NCBI RefSeq assembly: GCF_947497005.1
Contig: NZ_CANMFF010000011.1
Span: 120,707 to 184,706, forward strand
Direction of reading: 5' to 3'
Origin: an uncultured Ruegeria sp.
GTDB taxonomy: Bacteria > Pseudomonadota > Alphaproteobacteria > Rhodobacterales > Rhodobacteraceae
Length of the DNA stretch: 64,000 bases
Made by a program: the position numbers and the translations under genes. Under the pieces are notes generated by a model. The model did no database searches. It worked only from the letters and a program-made list of their open reading frames with translations, and was not told where the DNA came from. The number at the start of each line of letters is the position of its first letter. The first letter of the stretch is position 1. Positions 5,320 to 64,000 of this stretch are shown here, piece after piece.

Positions 5320-5641
5320 AATGCCACCTCACTAATCTCTAGCATTTCGGGGCTGGCAACGCCCCAGCGCTAGTTGCCTGCTCTACAAACCGGGCTTCCC
5401 CCATAGGCCTGTACTAAATATGGTGCGATGTGGCGTAGGTTCTGGCAACCCTATTTGTTGGGGATAACAGCAATAAGTTGTGGACAGACTGCAACGATGA
5501 TCAAAATATTGGAGCTTGGGCCAGCTTTGTCTTGATAAAACTCCGCAACACGTCAGAATACACGTCACCGCACAATCCGGGTTGGATTGCGCGGCGGTCT
5601 ATTTTGTCCTAAATCCTGAAAAACAGAAAACGCCCGGGGCG

Positions 5642-5890
5642 TTATTTGTCCAGTTTTGCCTCAAGCGCGGCGATGCGGGCTTCGAGTGCTGCGTTTTCTT
5701 CGCGCGCTTTCTGGGCCATGGCGCGTGCGGCGTCGAATTCTTCGCGCGTAACGAAATCGCGGTCGGCCAGCCAACGGTCCAGCATCGACTTCATCGCGTT
5801 TTCAGCCTCTTCCCGCGCGCCCTGCGCCACGCCCATGGCGTTGGTCATCAGTTGGGAAACATCGTCAAGGATCTTGTTGCGGGTTTGCAT
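5642..5890 (-). CDS. UbiK-family accessory factor (BMFP domain)
   Basis: MQTRNKILDDVSQLMTNAMGVAQGAREEAE... with C-terminal coiled coil. Confidence 0.85.
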   Translation of the reverse strand: MQTRNKILDDVSQLMTNAMGVAQGAREEAENAMKSMLDRWLADRDFVTREEFDAARAMAQKAREENAALEARIAALEAKLDK

Positions 5891-5987
5891 ATCTTTTCTC
5901 CGGTTTCACGGTTTATCTGTATATGGGCAAAGAATGGCGCGGGCTCAAGGTTGACTTGTCCTGCAAACCCCGGGCAATGAGACGCAC

Positions 5988-6875
5988 ATGCAAGCTGTTC
6001 TGAATTTCCCCGATCTGGCGCCCGAACTGTTCTCGATCTCGTTGTTCGGAATGGAGTTCGCCTTAAGGTGGTATGCGCTGGCCTATATCGTGGGCATCCT
6101 GATCGCGTGGCGACTGGCGGTTGTGGCTTTGCGCCGCCCGGCGCTGTGGCCTACGGATAGTCCGCCGATTAAGCCCGATCAACTGGAGGATCTGGTTACA
6201 TGGATCATTCTGGGCGTGATTCTGGGCGGGCGTCTGGGCTTCGTGCTGTTTTATCAACCCGGGTATTACCTGTCGCATCCGCTTGAGATTCTGAAGGTCT
6301 GGCAAGGCGGCATGGCGTTTCATGGCGGTCTGCTTGGCGTGATTCTTGCATCTTACCTGTTTGCCCGTCGGCATCAGATTCCTGCCCTGTCGCTGGGTGA
6401 TCTGGTCGCCTATACCGTTCCACCCGGACTGCTGCTTGGACGGTTGGCCAATTTCATCAATGCCGAGCTTTGGGGCCGCCCGAGCGAGCTGCCATGGGCC
6501 GTCATCTTTCCCGGCTTTGCCGCACAGGACTGCCCTGGCGTAATCGCAGGTATGTGCGCGCGCCACCCGTCGCAATTGTACGAAGCCGCGCTAGAAGGCG
6601 TGTTGCTGGGCACCTGGCTTCTGTGGCTGGTCTTTCGCCGGGGGGCGTTTCAGAAACCGGGCTTTATCATGGGCATGTTTCTGGCCGGATATGGCGCGTC
6701 GCGCTTTATTGTCGAGTTCTTCCGTCAGCCGGATGCGCAGTTCGTGTCTCCCGGCAACCCGCTGGGGCTGGCCTGGCATGTGGGCGGCTATGGTCTGACC
6801 ATGGGGCAGTTTCTGTCACTGCCGATGATCGCGATCGGCCTGTGGTTTGCCCTACGCGCGCGGCGGGCGGCATGA
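5988..6875 (+). CDS. lgt: Prolipoprotein diacylglyceryl transferase
   Basis: [36 protein letters not shown]. Confidence 0.95.
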
Positions 6876-7939
6876 GCCTGAAGGATCAGTTGATCGCCCG
6901 CATCCAACAGGATGGGCCGATGAGCGTGTCCGACTACATGACCGAGTGTCTGTTGCACCCCACGCTGGGCTATTACACCACGCGCGATCCGCTGGGCGCA
7001 GCGGGGGACTTCATCACAGCGCCGGAAATCAGCCAGATGTTCGGGGAACTAATCGGGCTGTGCTTGGCGCAAAGCTGGATGGATCAGGGAAAGCCCGTGC
7101 GGTTCACCCTGTGCGAGCTGGGACCGGGTCGCGGCACGTTGATGGCGGATATCCTGCGTGCGACGCGGGGCGTGGCCGGATTTCACGATGCGGCGCAGAT
7201 TGTTCTGGTCGAAGCATCGCCGGTATTGCAGCTGGCGCAGGCAGATACTCTGAAGGAGTACCAACCTGACTGGATCGACGGCGTTGCGGATCTGCCGGAT
7301 CAGCCGTTGTTGCTGGTCGCCAATGAGTTCTTTGACGCCCTGCCCATCCGGCAGTTCCTGCGCGAAGGCGACGGCTGGTGTGAACGTCTGGTGGGCGAAC
7401 GCGACGGCTCTTTTTTGTTCGGAAGGGGCCCGACCGAGCCGCAAGTGGCACTGACTGACAGGTTGTCGGATGCCAGCGACGACGATCTGGTAGAGCTATG
7501 CGCGGCTGCGATCCCGATATTGACTGTGATCGCGGGGCGGATTGCCAGCCATGGAGGGGCGGCCCTGATCGTGGATTATGGCGACTGGCGCTCGCTGGGC
7601 GATACGCTGCAGGCTCTGCAAAACCACGAAAGCGTCGACCCACTGGCCACACCCGGTCAGGCCGATCTGACTGCGCATGTAGATTTTGAACCTCTGGCCG
7701 TTGCAACCCGGGCCTGTGGTTGCCGCCATACGCGACTGACCCCGCAGGGCGTGTTTCTGGAACGGCTGGGCATAACCGCCCGCGCGCAGGCTTTGTCCAA
7801 AGCGCTGAGCGGTTCTGAGCTTGATGCATTGGTTACCGCGCATCGCCGGTTGACGCACCCGGATGAAATGGGAAATCTGTTCAAAGTGATGGGCCTTTTC
7901 CCCGCCTATGCCACCCCACCGCCAGGATTAGAGCCATGA
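6872..7939 (+). CDS. Class I SAM-dependent methyltransferase (MidA/NDUFAF7-like)
   Basis: [43 protein letters not shown] and [20 protein letters not shown] overlap with lgt. Confidence 0.9.
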
Positions 7940-8694
7940 CACTGGAAATTCTGACTTCAGACCTGCTTTCCCCGTTTCGTCATGGGTTCTTTACCCGCCG
8001 CGGCGGTGCCTCGTCCGGCATCTTTTCTGGGTTGAATTGCGGCCATGGCTCATCGGATCAGACCGAGGTTGTCGCGCTGAACCGCAGACGCGTTGCTGAT
8101 GCGATGGAAGTTGCGCCCGAGGCAATGATCGGAGTGCATCAGGTCCATTCTCCCGCGGTTCTGACAGTTGAAGGCCCGGTTCAGGGCGACAAACCCAGGG
8201 CCGACGCCATCGTAACGGCGACCCCCGGTCTTGCCCTGACGATTCTGACAGCCGATTGCCAGCCGGTCCTGTTTGCCGACCCCAAAGCCCAAGTGATCGG
8301 CGCCGCCCATGCAGGCTGGCGCGGGGCGCTGGAGGGTGTGCTGGAGGCCACGCTGGATGCCATGGAAGCAATTGGTGCAAAGCGTGGAAACATCAGCGCC
8401 GTCATCGGGCCCAGCATTTCGCAACGCGCCTATGAGGTAGGGCCCGAATTTCTGGATGCCTTCATGGCAGAGTCCCCGGACAACACACGTTTCTTTGCCA
8501 ATGGTCAGGACGACCGGTTGCAATTCGACCTGCCTGGCTTTGGTCTTCACCGTTTGCGGCAGGCCGGAATCGGTCATGCAGACTGGACCCGGCATTGCAC
8601 GTATTCTGATCCGGATCGGTTCTATTCCTACCGCCGTACGACACACGCGAAAGAGGTCGATTACGGGCGGCTGATTTCGGTCATAAGATTGTGA
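7936..8694 (+). CDS. pgeF: Peptidoglycan editing factor PgeF (YfiH/laccase domain)
   Basis: HGFFTRRGGASSGIFSGLNCGHGSSD, VHQVHSPAV, ADCQPVLFAD, AAHAGWRG; ATGA overlap with upstream gene. Confidence 0.92.
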   Translation: MTLEILTSDLLSPFRHGFFTRRGGASSGIFSGLNCGHGSSDQTEVVALNRRRVADAMEVAPEAMIGVHQVHSPAVLTVEGPVQGDKPRADAIVTATPGLALTILTADCQPVLFADPKAQVIGAAHAGWRGALEGVLEATLDAMEAIGAKRGNISAVIGPSISQRAYEVGPEFLDAFMAESPDNTRFFANGQDDRLQFDLPGFGLHRLRQAGIGHADWTRHCTYSDPDRFYSYRRTTHAKEVDYGRLISVIRL

Positions 8695-8782
8695 TTGAGG
8701 CCCAGATTTAGGCGCTCCGCCACTTTTCCGCCACATTTGTTGTGTTTATCGGACTCAGAATCGTAACGAGTTTTTGCCAGCA

Positions 8783-8800
8783 GTCAGATGGTCATCTGAC
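8783..8800. promoter_or_regulatory. 18-bp inverted repeat GTCAGATG-GT-CATCTGAC
   Basis: Perfect 8-bp arms with 2-bp spacer in the pgeF-Hint intergenic region. Confidence 0.45.
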
Positions 8801-8872
8801 GTCCTTGTTTCGGACGCTGGCGTGTTGAGTGGAAGGATGGACCGCCTAAATTTCTTGTCTGCAAAACATCCC

Positions 8873-8887
8873 GGATAAGCCTTATCC
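8873..8887. promoter_or_regulatory. 15-bp inverted repeat GGATAAG-C-CTTATCC
   Basis: Perfect 7-bp arms with 1-bp spacer, upstream of the small ORF at 8964. Confidence 0.4.
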
Positions 8888-8963
8888 CTGCCGCAAACAC
8901 GCGTCACAAAAGGTTCACAGAGGATGCGGGGGTCAGGTCTCCGTTCAGAGCAGGACCAGAAAA

Positions 8964-9092
8964 ATGAAAACCAAATCTCGCTTTCTGAAAGCCATGGTTG
9001 CCGCCACGCGGGACCAGAAGCTGGAAATGCCGTGGAAGCAGGTATCAAGCCATTCTGTCAGGGTCGCCAGCCGTATCGCGGCACGACGCTGA
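8964..9092 (+). CDS. Putative 42-aa basic small protein
   Basis: MKTKSRFLKAMVAATRDQKLEMPWKQVSSHSVRVASRIAARR*; AGGACCAGAAAA precedes ATG. Below the ORF-track length cutoff. Confidence 0.5.
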   Translation: MKTKSRFLKAMVAATRDQKLEMPWKQVSSHSVRVASRIAARR

Positions 9093-9424
9093 GACAGAAG
9101 CGCCCAAGACCAAGCTGCCGGTCTTAACTGGGTGAAATCGCATCAGGATTGCTCCTGCCTGGTGTGTATAGGGTCACGAGCGAGGGGTTCGTGATTTGTT
9201 CAGGAGTTGTGTGTGTGCGGGCAATTTTCGCCCGCGAAGTACGAGTTTGTCTGGGGGGTCAATGTGTTGACCATTGGAAAGCGAGATTTTGTCGCCATGC
9301 GGGGTCTTTTCGGCCGCCGCCCGAGGGTCACCCATTTATTTCAAGACAAAGAACCAGTTCGTCAGATTGGTCTGTACGGGGGTACGCCGCGTCTGATCGA
9401 ACATTTTGAGGGGACGGAATATTT

Positions 9425-10207
9425 ATGACTATTCCAAGTTCACTGGCCCGTGCGGCCAGAAATGCCATCGAAACGACGGCCATGCTGCGGGAAGCACCGC
9501 GGCCAGTCGCAAAACCAAAAGCCCAGCTGCGCCGCTATGAAGTCAGCAGCCTGCTGAAAAACGGTACTGTCACCCAAACCCGACACATCGCGCCCGCTCT
9601 GCCGATGTTCGAAGACGCCTTCTGCGCCTTTACGCGCGGATCGCTGGTCGAAACCGAGCACGGGCCGATGGCGATCGAAGATCTGATGCCCGGAGATACG
9701 GTTCTGACCCAGGATGGCGCATCGGAAACGGTGCTGTGGAAGGGATCTGTCACTCTGATCCCGGGGCGCGAGGATTCACGTGGTCGTACACGGCCTTTGA
9801 CGCGCGTCATGGCGGATACGTTCGGGATGCAAAAGCCGATGTCGGGCGTGATTGCTGGACCCGCGGCGCGGATCGTAGGAACGCCAGCGCATTTGCGGCA
9901 CCTGCATCGCGGGCAACCGATTCTGACACCGGTGTCCGCATTCCAGGATGGGATGGGCGTGATTGAAACAATGCCTCCGACGCCAGTTGAACTGTTTCAT
10001 ATTTGCCTAAAACGGCATTCCGTTATTCGTGTAGATGGTTTACAGTTCGAAACATATCACCCAGGTGTGAACGCGGTCCGGATGATCAGCCACTCGCTAC
10101 GGTCGATTTATCTGAACCTGTTTGCGCATATCGAGTCGCTTAACGATTTTGGCCCGCTGCTGATGCCGCGCGCCGGAGATGGAGAGATCGACGCGATGAC
10201 TGCCTGA
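9425..10207 (+). CDS. Stand-alone Hint (hedgehog/intein-type, Hint_2-like) domain protein
   Basis: FCAFTRGSLVETEHGPMAIEDLMPGDTVLTQDGASETVLWKGS is a typical Hint start region. Confidence 0.85.
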   Translation: MTIPSSLARAARNAIETTAMLREAPRPVAKPKAQLRRYEVSSLLKNGTVTQTRHIAPALPMFEDAFCAFTRGSLVETEHGPMAIEDLMPGDTVLTQDGASETVLWKGSVTLIPGREDSRGRTRPLTRVMADTFGMQKPMSGVIAGPAARIVGTPAHLRHLHRGQPILTPVSAFQDGMGVIETMPPTPVELFHICLKRHSVIRVDGLQFETYHPGVNAVRMISHSLRSIYLNLFAHIESLNDFGPLLMPRAGDGEIDAMTA

Positions 10208-10326
10208 GTACGATAGCGATTACTGCATTATGGGGGGCATCATGCAGCTGTTACTAAGTTGGATTCTATCCTTGGCGGTGGCTGCGATGCTGCCACCAAA
10301 CACCGCACAGCCAAAACGCGTAGGTG

Positions 10327-60890: not shown

Positions 60891-61039
60891 CTGCCCACTC
60901 GCACTTACTAACACCCCAACATTCAATCTCTCACTTATCAGTACAAAATCCGGCGGAAAAGAGACAGAACTGCAGCAATCACAAGAATGTTGTTAATGTG
61001 ACTCAGTGTTTCATGCCGTTTGTCGTGTTTCATGACCAC

Positions 61040-61310
61040 CAATTGACGTCTGTGGCGCGTTTGACTGCGCAAAGGAAGACCCTTGGGTATGGGCCATGCA
61101 GGTTGGCCACACGGCGCCATTCCTGGTGGGGTTGACCCGCCTCCCACAGCTTGTCCTATAACCCGCCCAGCAGGTCGCTTGACGCGTACAGTTCCCAGGC
61201 CAGTTCGCCCGAAAAAGACAAGCGCGTGGCGATCAGAGGAATAGCCGCAACGGTGATCTCCTGTGCCTTGAGCCAGCCGAAATTTGGTATTGTCCAACGC
61301 GACGTTGGGT
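61040..61310 (-). pseudogene. Frameshifted GcvT-like fragment (sarcosine oxidase alpha/dimethylglycine dehydrogenase C-terminal type)
   Basis: NVALDNTKFRLAQ | AQEITVAAIPLIATRLSFSGELAWELYASSDLLGGL* | DKLWEAGQPH | GMAPCGQPAWPIPKG occur consecutively but in different reverse frames with an in-frame stop. Confidence 0.65.
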
Positions 61311-61983
61311 TGCACGGCCACTGCTGATTATCCGACAGCCAGTGATCGATGATCCCGGTGAATCCGTCCACCTTTGACCACCGGATCGGTGCTGAGCAGC
61401 AATAGCTGGGCGGAACCGAAAACGCCAAATCCTGCGAACGCAGTCCCGGAAAATGCCCGGGGGGGGCTCTCACTGGCTCATGCCCTCGAAACACGCCATG
61501 CGAACCTTGTAAAATCAATCCACGATGAGGATCGCCCCACCCTCCTTCCCTTAAAAGAAAGCGTATGGATGAACGGCTTTTGCACAGCCCGCAGCAGGTT
61601 AAATCAACCGCCATCGCGGCCGCTTTTTTCACCGTCGTTCTCACGTGGCCAAAGAACATCTTAGTGACAGGCACAGGTTCGTCGTTAAAATTGACTTATT
61701 TCCCGGGGTACCCGGACAAGTCGCATCTCACCCGGTTTCTTTACAGTTCAGACCGGCATAACCCCAACGGGTTGCTGCGAAAAATCGTGCTTGCGTCAGT
61801 CATACAAGCGCTGCCCGGTTGGTATTGCTCGACTGGCTGGTTAACCCATGGTGGTGTTTTGGTGTCGCAACCACAAGACGCGAGCCAATTTGTGATCCAA
61901 GGCCTTGATCATATATGGTTTACATTGGAACGTACCCGGGCCACCGCGCTACTGGCCAAACTCTTACCTTTGGGAAATACCGA

Positions 61984-63132
61984 ATGACACTGAACCTTCC
62001 TGAGACGGGAACTTTCGTTGGGCGCATTTGGTTGCCTGATGTGCAAGGCCCTGCTGTAGTGGCAAGGCGAGGCGACCGTCTGGTTGACATTTCATCGCCA
62101 GAACAGCCCACCATGCAAGCTCTGCTGGAGCACGACAATCCGGCGATAGTGGCCCGCGACGCGCAAGGGACCGATATTGGGAGCCTGTCCGATATCGCTG
62201 AAAACTCGACCGAAACACCGGATCCCGCCAAACCTCGCTTTCTGGCGCCTTCAGATTTGCAACCGATCAAGGCCTGCGGCGTGACCTTTGTGTCATCAAT
62301 GCTGGAACGCGTGATAGAGGAACAGGCCAAGGGCGATCCTGCCAAAGCCGACGCGATCCGTGCGCGATGCACCGAAATCCTGGGCGACAGCCTGCGTTCG
62401 GTTGTACCGGGATCGGACAAGGCCATGGCCCTCAAAGACGCGCTGATCGCCGAAGACATGTGGTCGCAATACCTTGAAGTTGGCATCGGCCCCGACGCCG
62501 AGGTCTTTACCAAATCGCAGGCCATGTCAGCTGTCGGGTTTGGGGCCAGTGTCGGTTTGCACCCGGTGTCCACCTGGAACAATCCCGAGCCTGAAATGGT
62601 TCTGGCGATTGACAGTACCGGTACGATCAAAGGCGCAACTCTGGGCAATGACGTCAATTTGCGCGATGTCGAAGGGCGTTCAGCGCTGTTGCTGGGCAAG
62701 GCAAAGGACAACAATGCCTCATGCGCACTTGGTCCGATGCTTCGGTTGTTCGATGAAAGCTTTGATCTTGATGACGTACGCCGCGCCGAGCTGACCCTGC
62801 GCGTGATCGGGGGAGATGGCTTTGTGCTGAACGGCACCAGTTCCATGTCCGAGATCAGCCGCGATCCCGAGAATCTTGTGGGTCAAGCCCAAGGTGCACA
62901 TCATCAATATCCGGATGGTTTCTTCCTGATGCTCGGGACACTTTTCGCCCCGACTCAAGATCGCGACACCCCTGGCGAGGGGTTCACCCATAAGCTGGGC
63001 GATGTCGTGGAAATATGCAATCCCGAGCTTGGCACGCTTTCCAACACAGTCCGGTTGTCGACAGAATGTCCGCCCTGGGGCTTTGGAACCGGCGCATTGA
63101 TGAAGAACCTCGTGTCGCGACATTTAATATAA
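61984..63132 (+). CDS. Fumarylacetoacetate hydrolase family protein
   Basis: GVTFVSSMLERVIEEQAKGD; GIGPDAEVFTKSQAMSAVGFGASVGLHPVSTWNNPEPEMVLAI; NDVNLRDVEGRSALLLGKAKDNNASCALGPMLRLFD. Confidence 0.87.
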   Translation: MTLNLPETGTFVGRIWLPDVQGPAVVARRGDRLVDISSPEQPTMQALLEHDNPAIVARDAQGTDIGSLSDIAENSTETPDPAKPRFLAPSDLQPIKACGVTFVSSMLERVIEEQAKGDPAKADAIRARCTEILGDSLRSVVPGSDKAMALKDALIAEDMWSQYLEVGIGPDAEVFTKSQAMSAVGFGASVGLHPVSTWNNPEPEMVLAIDSTGTIKGATLGNDVNLRDVEGRSALLLGKAKDNNASCALGPMLRLFDESFDLDDVRRAELTLRVIGGDGFVLNGTSSMSEISRDPENLVGQAQGAHHQYPDGFFLMLGTLFAPTQDRDTPGEGFTHKLGDVVEICNPELGTLSNTVRLSTECPPWGFGTGALMKNLVSRHLI

Positions 63133-63358
63133 GGGGCAAGAAATGGGCGCGGAGCGTCTGACAGCAGAAAGAGCTTTGTTGTGTGGGGGCGCCTAACCGT
63201 CTGTCGCAATGGTGTTCTCATCGCGTTACTGTTCACTTGCTGACAGACCTTTGGTAGAGCCTCTTTCCTAAGAGGGTGCCACTCCAACCAGTAGGCGACG
63301 ATGCTGTTGAATGGCGAGGTCTCCGAGAGATGTTCATAGCGTCGTTTCAGCAGCGACC

Positions 63359-63757
63359 AAAATCCGAAATCGACCTCTGCCATCGCAAATCGAGGCAGCC
63401 GTCCATGCGATTGATCAATCTGACGATCTTATTGTGTCTCTGCCGACAAGCGCCGGAGTACCGCGCACAGCGGAGCTCAGCATATTACGTTGTCATGCCG
63501 CAGGACGACAGGTGGTTTCTGTCACACCTCTTCGTGCTTTCTTTGCCCAAACGGAAACCACGCTACAAATGACGTTCGGTCCACTTAGGATAACGATCAT
63601 GGCGCGCCACCGCAGCGTCTGGGTCCGTGGGTTTGACGAAGACGCGATCTGCGAACGCGATATTGTGGTAGCAACACCCAAGAAGTTCGACTTCGTTCTG
63701 CGCAACGAACCCACGCACCTTCGCTTTCTTCCCCCTGCATCTGGGGTCACTGGGTGA
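63359..63757 (+). pseudogene. Degraded DEAD/DEAH-box (Ski2-like) helicase N-terminal fragment
   Basis: IRNRPLPSQIEAAVHAIDQSDDLIVSLPTSAGVPRTAELSILRCHAAGRQVVSVTPLRAFFAQTETTLQ...DIVVATPKKFDFVLRN: Q motif, motif Ia-like TPLRA and motif Ib-like VVATPKK present; Walker A expected PTSAGKT is PTSAGVP; stops before motif II. Confidence 0.65.
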
Positions 63758-63812
63758 AGGCGAGAATTCCCTTGGGTTACAGGATTAAGTGTTTGTTTTC
63801 TGAGGTTATATT

Positions 63813-63838
63813 TGGTTGCGGGAGTAGGATTTGAACCT
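63813..63838 (-). pseudogene. 3' part of an initiator-tRNA-like (fMet) sequence: T arm, acceptor 3' strand and CCA
   Basis: Minus strand: AGGTTCAAATCCTACTCCCGCAACCA; the 5' T-stem partner (expected GTAGG) is disrupted (AGAGG). Confidence 0.65.
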
Positions 63839-63868
63839 CTGGTCCTGCGCGTTGCGCGTTCGTCAGGC

Positions 63869-63889
63869 GATCGATCCACTGGATCGATC
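63869..63889. repeat. Palindrome GATCGATCCA-C-TGGATCGATC
   Basis: 10-bp perfect arms, 1-nt centre. Confidence 0.9.
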
Positions 63890-63904
63890 TCTATTCTTCC
63901 TCAC

Positions 63905-63928
63905 CCTTCAGGTTATGAGCCTGTCGAG
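63905..63928 (-). pseudogene. fMet-like anticodon arm (CAT anticodon)
   Basis: Minus strand: CTCGACAGGCTCATAACCTGAAGG, i.e. CAGG-CTCATAA-CCTG stem-loop. Confidence 0.6.
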
Positions 63929-63942
63929 GTGAAGACGTTAAG

Positions 63943-63965
63943 CAATTGATCCAGTGGATCAATTG
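63943..63965. repeat. Palindrome CAATTGATCCA-G-TGGATCAATTG
   Basis: 11-bp perfect arms, 1-nt centre; shares GATCCASTGGATC core with 63869-63889. Confidence 0.9.
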
Positions 63966-64000
63966 TAGTCTGAACGGGCTGCTTTGGATTTTCTGACGCT

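What the first reader, a model, noticed from the sequence alone, without database searches (positions are those of the whole stretch)
63359..63757. Relict Ski2-like helicase next to the tRNA-like site: possible eroded defence island
The translated fragment keeps helicase motif spacing but has lost the Walker A lysine (PTSAGVP instead of PTSAGKT) and ends before motif II. Large helicases of this type occur in anti-phage loci such as Hachiman (HamB); that link is inference. With the interrupted tRNA-like sequence about 60 bp away, this fits a decayed integrative element, with more accessory DNA possibly beyond the edge.
Basis: partly seen in the sequence, partly recalled or inferred. Interest (0 to 1): 0.6.

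Follow-up and report, generated by a model that had tools for sequence, protein, structure and literature searches.

The report
Dead fragment of a Hachiman helicase
This is a broken, non-functional piece (about 555 bases) of the helicase gene of a known anti-phage system called Hachiman, lying among other gene debris beside a tRNA-fMet-like sequence; it is a genuine genetic fossil but an ordinary one.

Summary
Window 63168-63722 (+) is an internal fragment of HamB, the Hachiman sensor helicase. It matches PADLOC HamB at E=7e-46 and solved HamB (PDB 8vx9) at 4e-37; Hel308/Ski2 helicases match only at about 1e-4 or worse. It covers HamB codons ~237-422 of 1172, with a TAG stop (63255-63257), a one-base deletion (~63378), Walker A GKT changed to GVP, and an end before motif II. 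The relic carries 23 private amino-acid changes in 111 codons, against 0-2 in intact relatives, so it evolves as a pseudogene. No HamA and no other HamB piece was found in the genome. The window edge is a contig end at a repeat; beyond it most likely lies an rRNA operon ending in tRNA-fMet, or the attR of an fMet element. Gene order shared with congeners stops at ~61005; the 2.8 kb to the fMet-like site is a patchwork. A complete 2.65-kb integrase element sits at an intact fMet elsewhere in this genome, so a decayed element is plausible but unproven. 'Defence island' is not supported.

The parts
63168..63722 (+). hamB pseudogene fragment (Hachiman helicase, codons about 237-422 of 1172; end of N-terminal region plus RecA1 up to motif Ib)
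   Evidence: DNA alignments to four intact hamB genes and tblastn; PADLOC and PDB hits
63255..63257 (+). in-frame TAG stop in the pseudogene
   Evidence: tblastn frame
63377..63380 (+). one-base deletion (frameshift) at the conserved W308 codon
   Evidence: DNA alignment shows a single gap here against L020 and L023
63443..63463 (+). Walker A, PTSAGVP instead of PTSAGKT
   Evidence: 82 of 83 intact loci read PTSAGKT; K335 and T336 are among 15 invariant residues lost
63311..63757 (+). 148-aa chance ORF over the second half of the pseudogene (first 22 aa out of frame, last ~11 aa not HamB)
63814..63839 (-). 3' end (T arm and acceptor) of a tRNA-fMet-like sequence; att-like half site
   Evidence: exact 26-bp repeat at C7, C9 and C46; only copy in the window
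63786..63813 (-). flank resembling the sequence that follows tRNA-fMet in C9 and in many congener fMet genes
   Evidence: 85% over about 53 bp with C9:52-105; 80-87% in congeners
63840..64000 (-). interrupted pseudo-tRNA-fMet block with two 19-bp palindromes, ending at the contig end
   Evidence: 99% to C7:273046-273233; partial matches beside fMet genes of congeners
61984..63132 (+). complete FAA-hydrolase-family gene, without its usual operon partners
   Evidence: Pfam FAA_hydrolase; 82-84% aa identity to congeners over 382 aa; in a congener an aldehyde-dehydrogenase-like gene follows (named from sequence, not by a family search)
61006..63813 (.). 2.8-kb patchwork between conserved chromosome (to about 61005) and the fMet-like site
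   Evidence: synteny alignments with congeners

Best explanation
A Hachiman (hamA-hamB) locus, or a piece of one, was once acquired near an rRNA-operon-linked tRNA-fMet site. Deletions removed hamA, the first ~236 codons and the last ~750 codons of hamB. The surviving internal piece then took a stop codon, a frameshift and many missense changes, including loss of the Walker A lysine. It encodes no working helicase and is simply decaying. Shown: identity as HamB, truncation, disabling lesions, relaxed constraint, absence of the rest of the system from the assembly. Inferred: that it entered with, or by recombination near, an element that used the adjacent fMet site.
For: HamB is the best hit by about 30 orders of magnitude over other helicases. 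Homology is bounded at about 63168 and 63722. There is a stop and a frameshift. 23 private amino-acid changes in 111 codons, against 0-2 in five intact genes; the relic's private nucleotide changes fall at codon positions 1 and 2 (14 and 11), whereas intact genes have none at position 2. The relic is 72-73% identical to intact genes that are 89-95% identical to one another. No HamA or other HamB piece in the genome. fMet elements with tyrosine integrases exist in the same genome and genus. Synteny is broken at about 61005.
Against: The link to an fMet element is circumstantial. Seven intact hamB loci of roseobacter-type and related genomes have no tRNA within the stretches held. No second att copy or integrase lies in the adjacent patchwork. 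The flank 63786-63813 is also found at fMet genes followed by housekeeping genes in congeners, so it may be ordinary rRNA-operon flank. The HamA search in the genome had no positive control.
Confidence: 0.93

Rival explanations
1. The HamB piece is general genomic debris captured by recombination next to an rRNA operon, not cargo of an integrative element at fMet (a rival only to the inferred route of arrival, not to the identification as a dead hamB).
For: The 2.8-kb stretch also holds an orphan FAA-hydrolase gene cut out of its operon and a GCV_T-like fragment with a sub-threshold match, unlike a single element. No integrase or second att site was found nearby. Intact relatives have no tRNA close by.
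Against: The fMet 3' end is a landing site in this genome (C9 element), and contig C7 shows a truncated copy of the same integrase next to the same 188-bp block.
Confidence: 0.45
2. The 148-aa ORF is an expressed, functional helicase-like protein, for instance a dominant-negative or DNA-binding regulator.
For: An open frame of 148 codons exists.
Against: It starts out of frame, lacks the Walker A lysine, motif II and RecA2, carries changes at 15 of 65 positions that are invariant in 55 intact proteins, and has no relative of similar architecture among the searches made.
Confidence: 0.02
3. The lesions are assembly errors at a contig end and the real locus is an intact Hachiman system.
For: The contig ends 243 bp past the ORF at a repeat.
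Against: Homology stops on both sides inside unique sequence, and there are many private missense changes. No other part of hamAB was found in a genome rated 100% complete.
Confidence: 0.02
4. It is a remnant of another Ski2-like helicase (Hel308 or a related SF2 type) rather than Hachiman.
For: It shares the general SF2 motifs.
Against: HamB E-values are 1e-37 to 1e-46, against about 1e-4 or worse for Hel308/Ski2. DNA identity reaches 78% over 509 alignment columns with an intact HamB locus of Mameliella.
Confidence: 0.01

Closest known systems
Hachiman HamB (HamB of PDB 8vx9; PADLOC HamB PDLC00174; closest intact copy found: Mameliella sp. MMSF_3455, L120)
   Same: Collinear amino-acid and DNA homology over about 185 codons: Q-motif region, motif I position, Ia and Ib. 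72% aa identity over 176 codons to L120.
   Different: Only codons ~237-422 of 1172 remain. Stop, frameshift, no Walker A lysine, no motif II, no RecA2, no HamA. Not a working system.
fMet-specific tyrosine-integrase element (C9:1-2728 in the same genome; 9.2-kb element in G028, L088)
   Same: Same tRNA-fMet 3' repeat and, for C9, a similar 28-bp flank next to it.
   Different: The window stretch has no integrase, no second att copy and no recognisable arm sites; element origin is inferred only.

Membership tests
Hachiman (HamAB) | Sequence homology of the helicase to HamB above other SF2 helicases | tested here: met
   PADLOC HamB 7.2e-46, PDB HamB 3.9e-37, Hel308 2.6e-4
Hachiman (HamAB) | Adjacent hamA (effector nuclease) | tested here: not met
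   No HamA homology beyond chance in 61900-64000 or elsewhere in the genome (no positive control)
Hachiman (HamAB) | Functional ATPase motifs in HamB (Walker A GKT, motif II DEGH) | tested here: not met
   GVP in place of GKT; homology ends before motif II
Hachiman (HamAB) | Full-length HamB with RecA1, RecA2 and HamA-binding region | tested here: not met
   Only codons ~237-422 present; no other piece in the genome
tRNA-fMet integrative element | Duplicated tRNA 3' end bounding the element (attL and attR) | tested here: inconclusive
   One half site at 63814-63839; none elsewhere in the window; contig ends 161 bp further on
tRNA-fMet integrative element | Integrase gene at the element end | tested here: inconclusive
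   None next to the relic in the window; a truncated integrase lies beside the near-identical 188-bp block on C7, which shows only what could lie beyond the edge
Defence island | Two or more clustered defence genes | tested here: not met
   No second defence gene among the ORFs examined at 57.4-64 kb, by Pfam only apart from the relic; sequence beyond the contig end unknown

The most novel reading that the evidence does not exclude
The rRNA-operon-linked tRNA-fMet genes of this genus, with their tandem pseudo-fMet copies, form a recurrent landing and decay site for small elements carrying anti-phage genes. The Hachiman relic, the C9 mini-element (integrase plus a weak HEPN_Apea match) and a NACHT-domain gene beside an fMet in congener G005 would be three snapshots of it.
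Probability: 0.25. Interest if true: 0.35.

Novelty: new member of a known kind. Interest (0 to 1): 0.13.

Why it matters
It shows that this lineage once met a Hachiman locus and lost it. It also points to the rRNA-linked fMet gene as a place to look for mobile, possibly defensive, cargo in the genus. By itself it adds no mechanism and no working system.

Tried and rejected
First genome-contig scan with the fragment alone found nothing, probably because the peptide patterns fell on decayed residues; a scan with an alignment of intact HamB worked. The idea that the flank 63786-63813 proves an element's left end was dropped: similar flanks precede housekeeping genes (AsmA, thiolase) at fMet genes of congeners. 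The tail 63723-63800 as a decayed motif II region was rejected by shuffle test. PADLOC on large ORFs next to congener fMet genes gave only one weak hit (DRT-like, 1.6e-6). Rfam gave nothing credible in 60-64 kb. No phage record encodes a relative of the fragment. A second helicase-like match on contig C14 (29% identity, one stop) was not pursued as a HamB piece because its identity is that of a distant SF2 helicase. A literature search for fMet-linked islands in Rhodobacter relatives gave nothing directly relevant among the papers listed.

Full report
Observation. The ORF at 63311-63757 matches Pfam DEAD just above its cut-off. Against solved structures it matches HamB of Hachiman at E=3.9e-37, while Hel308 reaches only 2.6e-4 and Ski2 about 0.02. 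PADLOC assigns it to HamB (PDLC00174, 7.2e-46).

Extent and lesions. DNA alignments give 63168-63722 at most. Neither the stretch before nor the tail after scores above shuffles. Of 83 intact loci, 82 read PTSAGKT where the relic reads PTSAGVP, and the other did not match the pattern searched. Over 111 codons the relic has 23 private amino-acid changes, against 0-2 in five intact genes, and it breaks 15 of 65 positions invariant in 55 intact proteins. Intact alphaproteobacterial copies are 89-95% identical here while the relic is 72-73% to each. This is a pseudogene. The closest intact copy found is in Mameliella (72% aa over 176 codons, 78% DNA over 509 alignment columns).

Rest of the system. 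Intact relatives on plasmids have hamA directly before hamB. In this genome no other HamB piece and no HamA was found (the latter without a positive control). In the order sampled (395 genomes), one genome has a close intact copy (70%) and two more have 46% copies. The Hachiman mechanism (HamB sensor helicase restraining the HamA nuclease) is described in PMC12278908; nothing of it can operate from this fragment.

Surroundings. The window is C11:120707-184706 and its right edge is the end of the contig. The last 188 bp are 99% identical to C7:273046-273233. Another contig, C46, carries 23S-5S-tRNA-fMet and ends exactly at the tRNA. In a congener the order is fMet, spacer with palindrome, pseudo-fMet, terminator-like flank (L054). 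So the sequence beyond the edge is most likely an fMet gene and rRNA operon, or, as on C7, an attR followed by an integrase.

Element or debris. A complete 2.65-kb element lies at fMet on C9: tRNA, one cargo gene with a weak HEPN_Apea match, a tyrosine integrase, and a second tRNA 3' end. A 9.2-kb element with a related integrase sits between two fMet 3' ends in a congener. This makes an element origin plausible. Against it, chromosome order conserved with congeners stops at about 61005, and the 2.8 kb from there to the fMet-like site contains a complete FAA-hydrolase gene without the aldehyde-dehydrogenase-like gene that follows it in a congener (that name is my reading of the sequence), a GCV_T-like fragment below threshold and the HamB piece, with no integrase or second att site. 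Flanks similar to the one next to the tRNA 3' end are also seen where ordinary genes follow. I rate the element link at roughly even odds.

Verdict. A real but ordinary pseudogene fragment of a known defence system. 'Relict helicase' is confirmed, 'HamB' is confirmed, 'decayed integrative element' is possible, and 'defence island' is not supported.

Noticed in passing
L010 (C9) 1-2728: Complete 2.65-kb integrative element in tRNA-fMet of the same genome: a 298-aa cargo protein with a weak HEPN_Apea match (E=0.0025, below cut-off), a 415-aa tyrosine integrase, and a duplicated tRNA 3' end of about 45 bp beginning in the anticodon loop.
   Followed up: partly
63840-64000 and C7:273046-273233: Degenerate tRNA-fMet-like copies interrupted by short inserts with near-perfect palindromes (ATYGATCCASTGGATCRAT), with relatives beside fMet genes across the genus (L049, L051, L054, L055). 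In this genome the pattern occurs only in these blocks and one truncated copy at C7:262345. Origin unexplained.
   Followed up: partly
L009 3919-4350 and 15393-15755: Two truncated tyrosine integrases on C7 (arm-binding domain only), one beside tRNA-Ser and one beside the fMet att site; the former is cut by the same palindrome-bearing repeat.
   Followed up: partly
L092 (G005:C30) 5405-10270: A 1622-aa NACHT-domain protein encoded close to a tRNA-fMet gene in a congener; a possible defence gene at the same type of site.
   Followed up: no
61156-61674 (-): GCV_T (aminomethyltransferase)-like fragment, sub-threshold, between conserved chromosome and the FAA-hydrolase gene.
   Followed up: no
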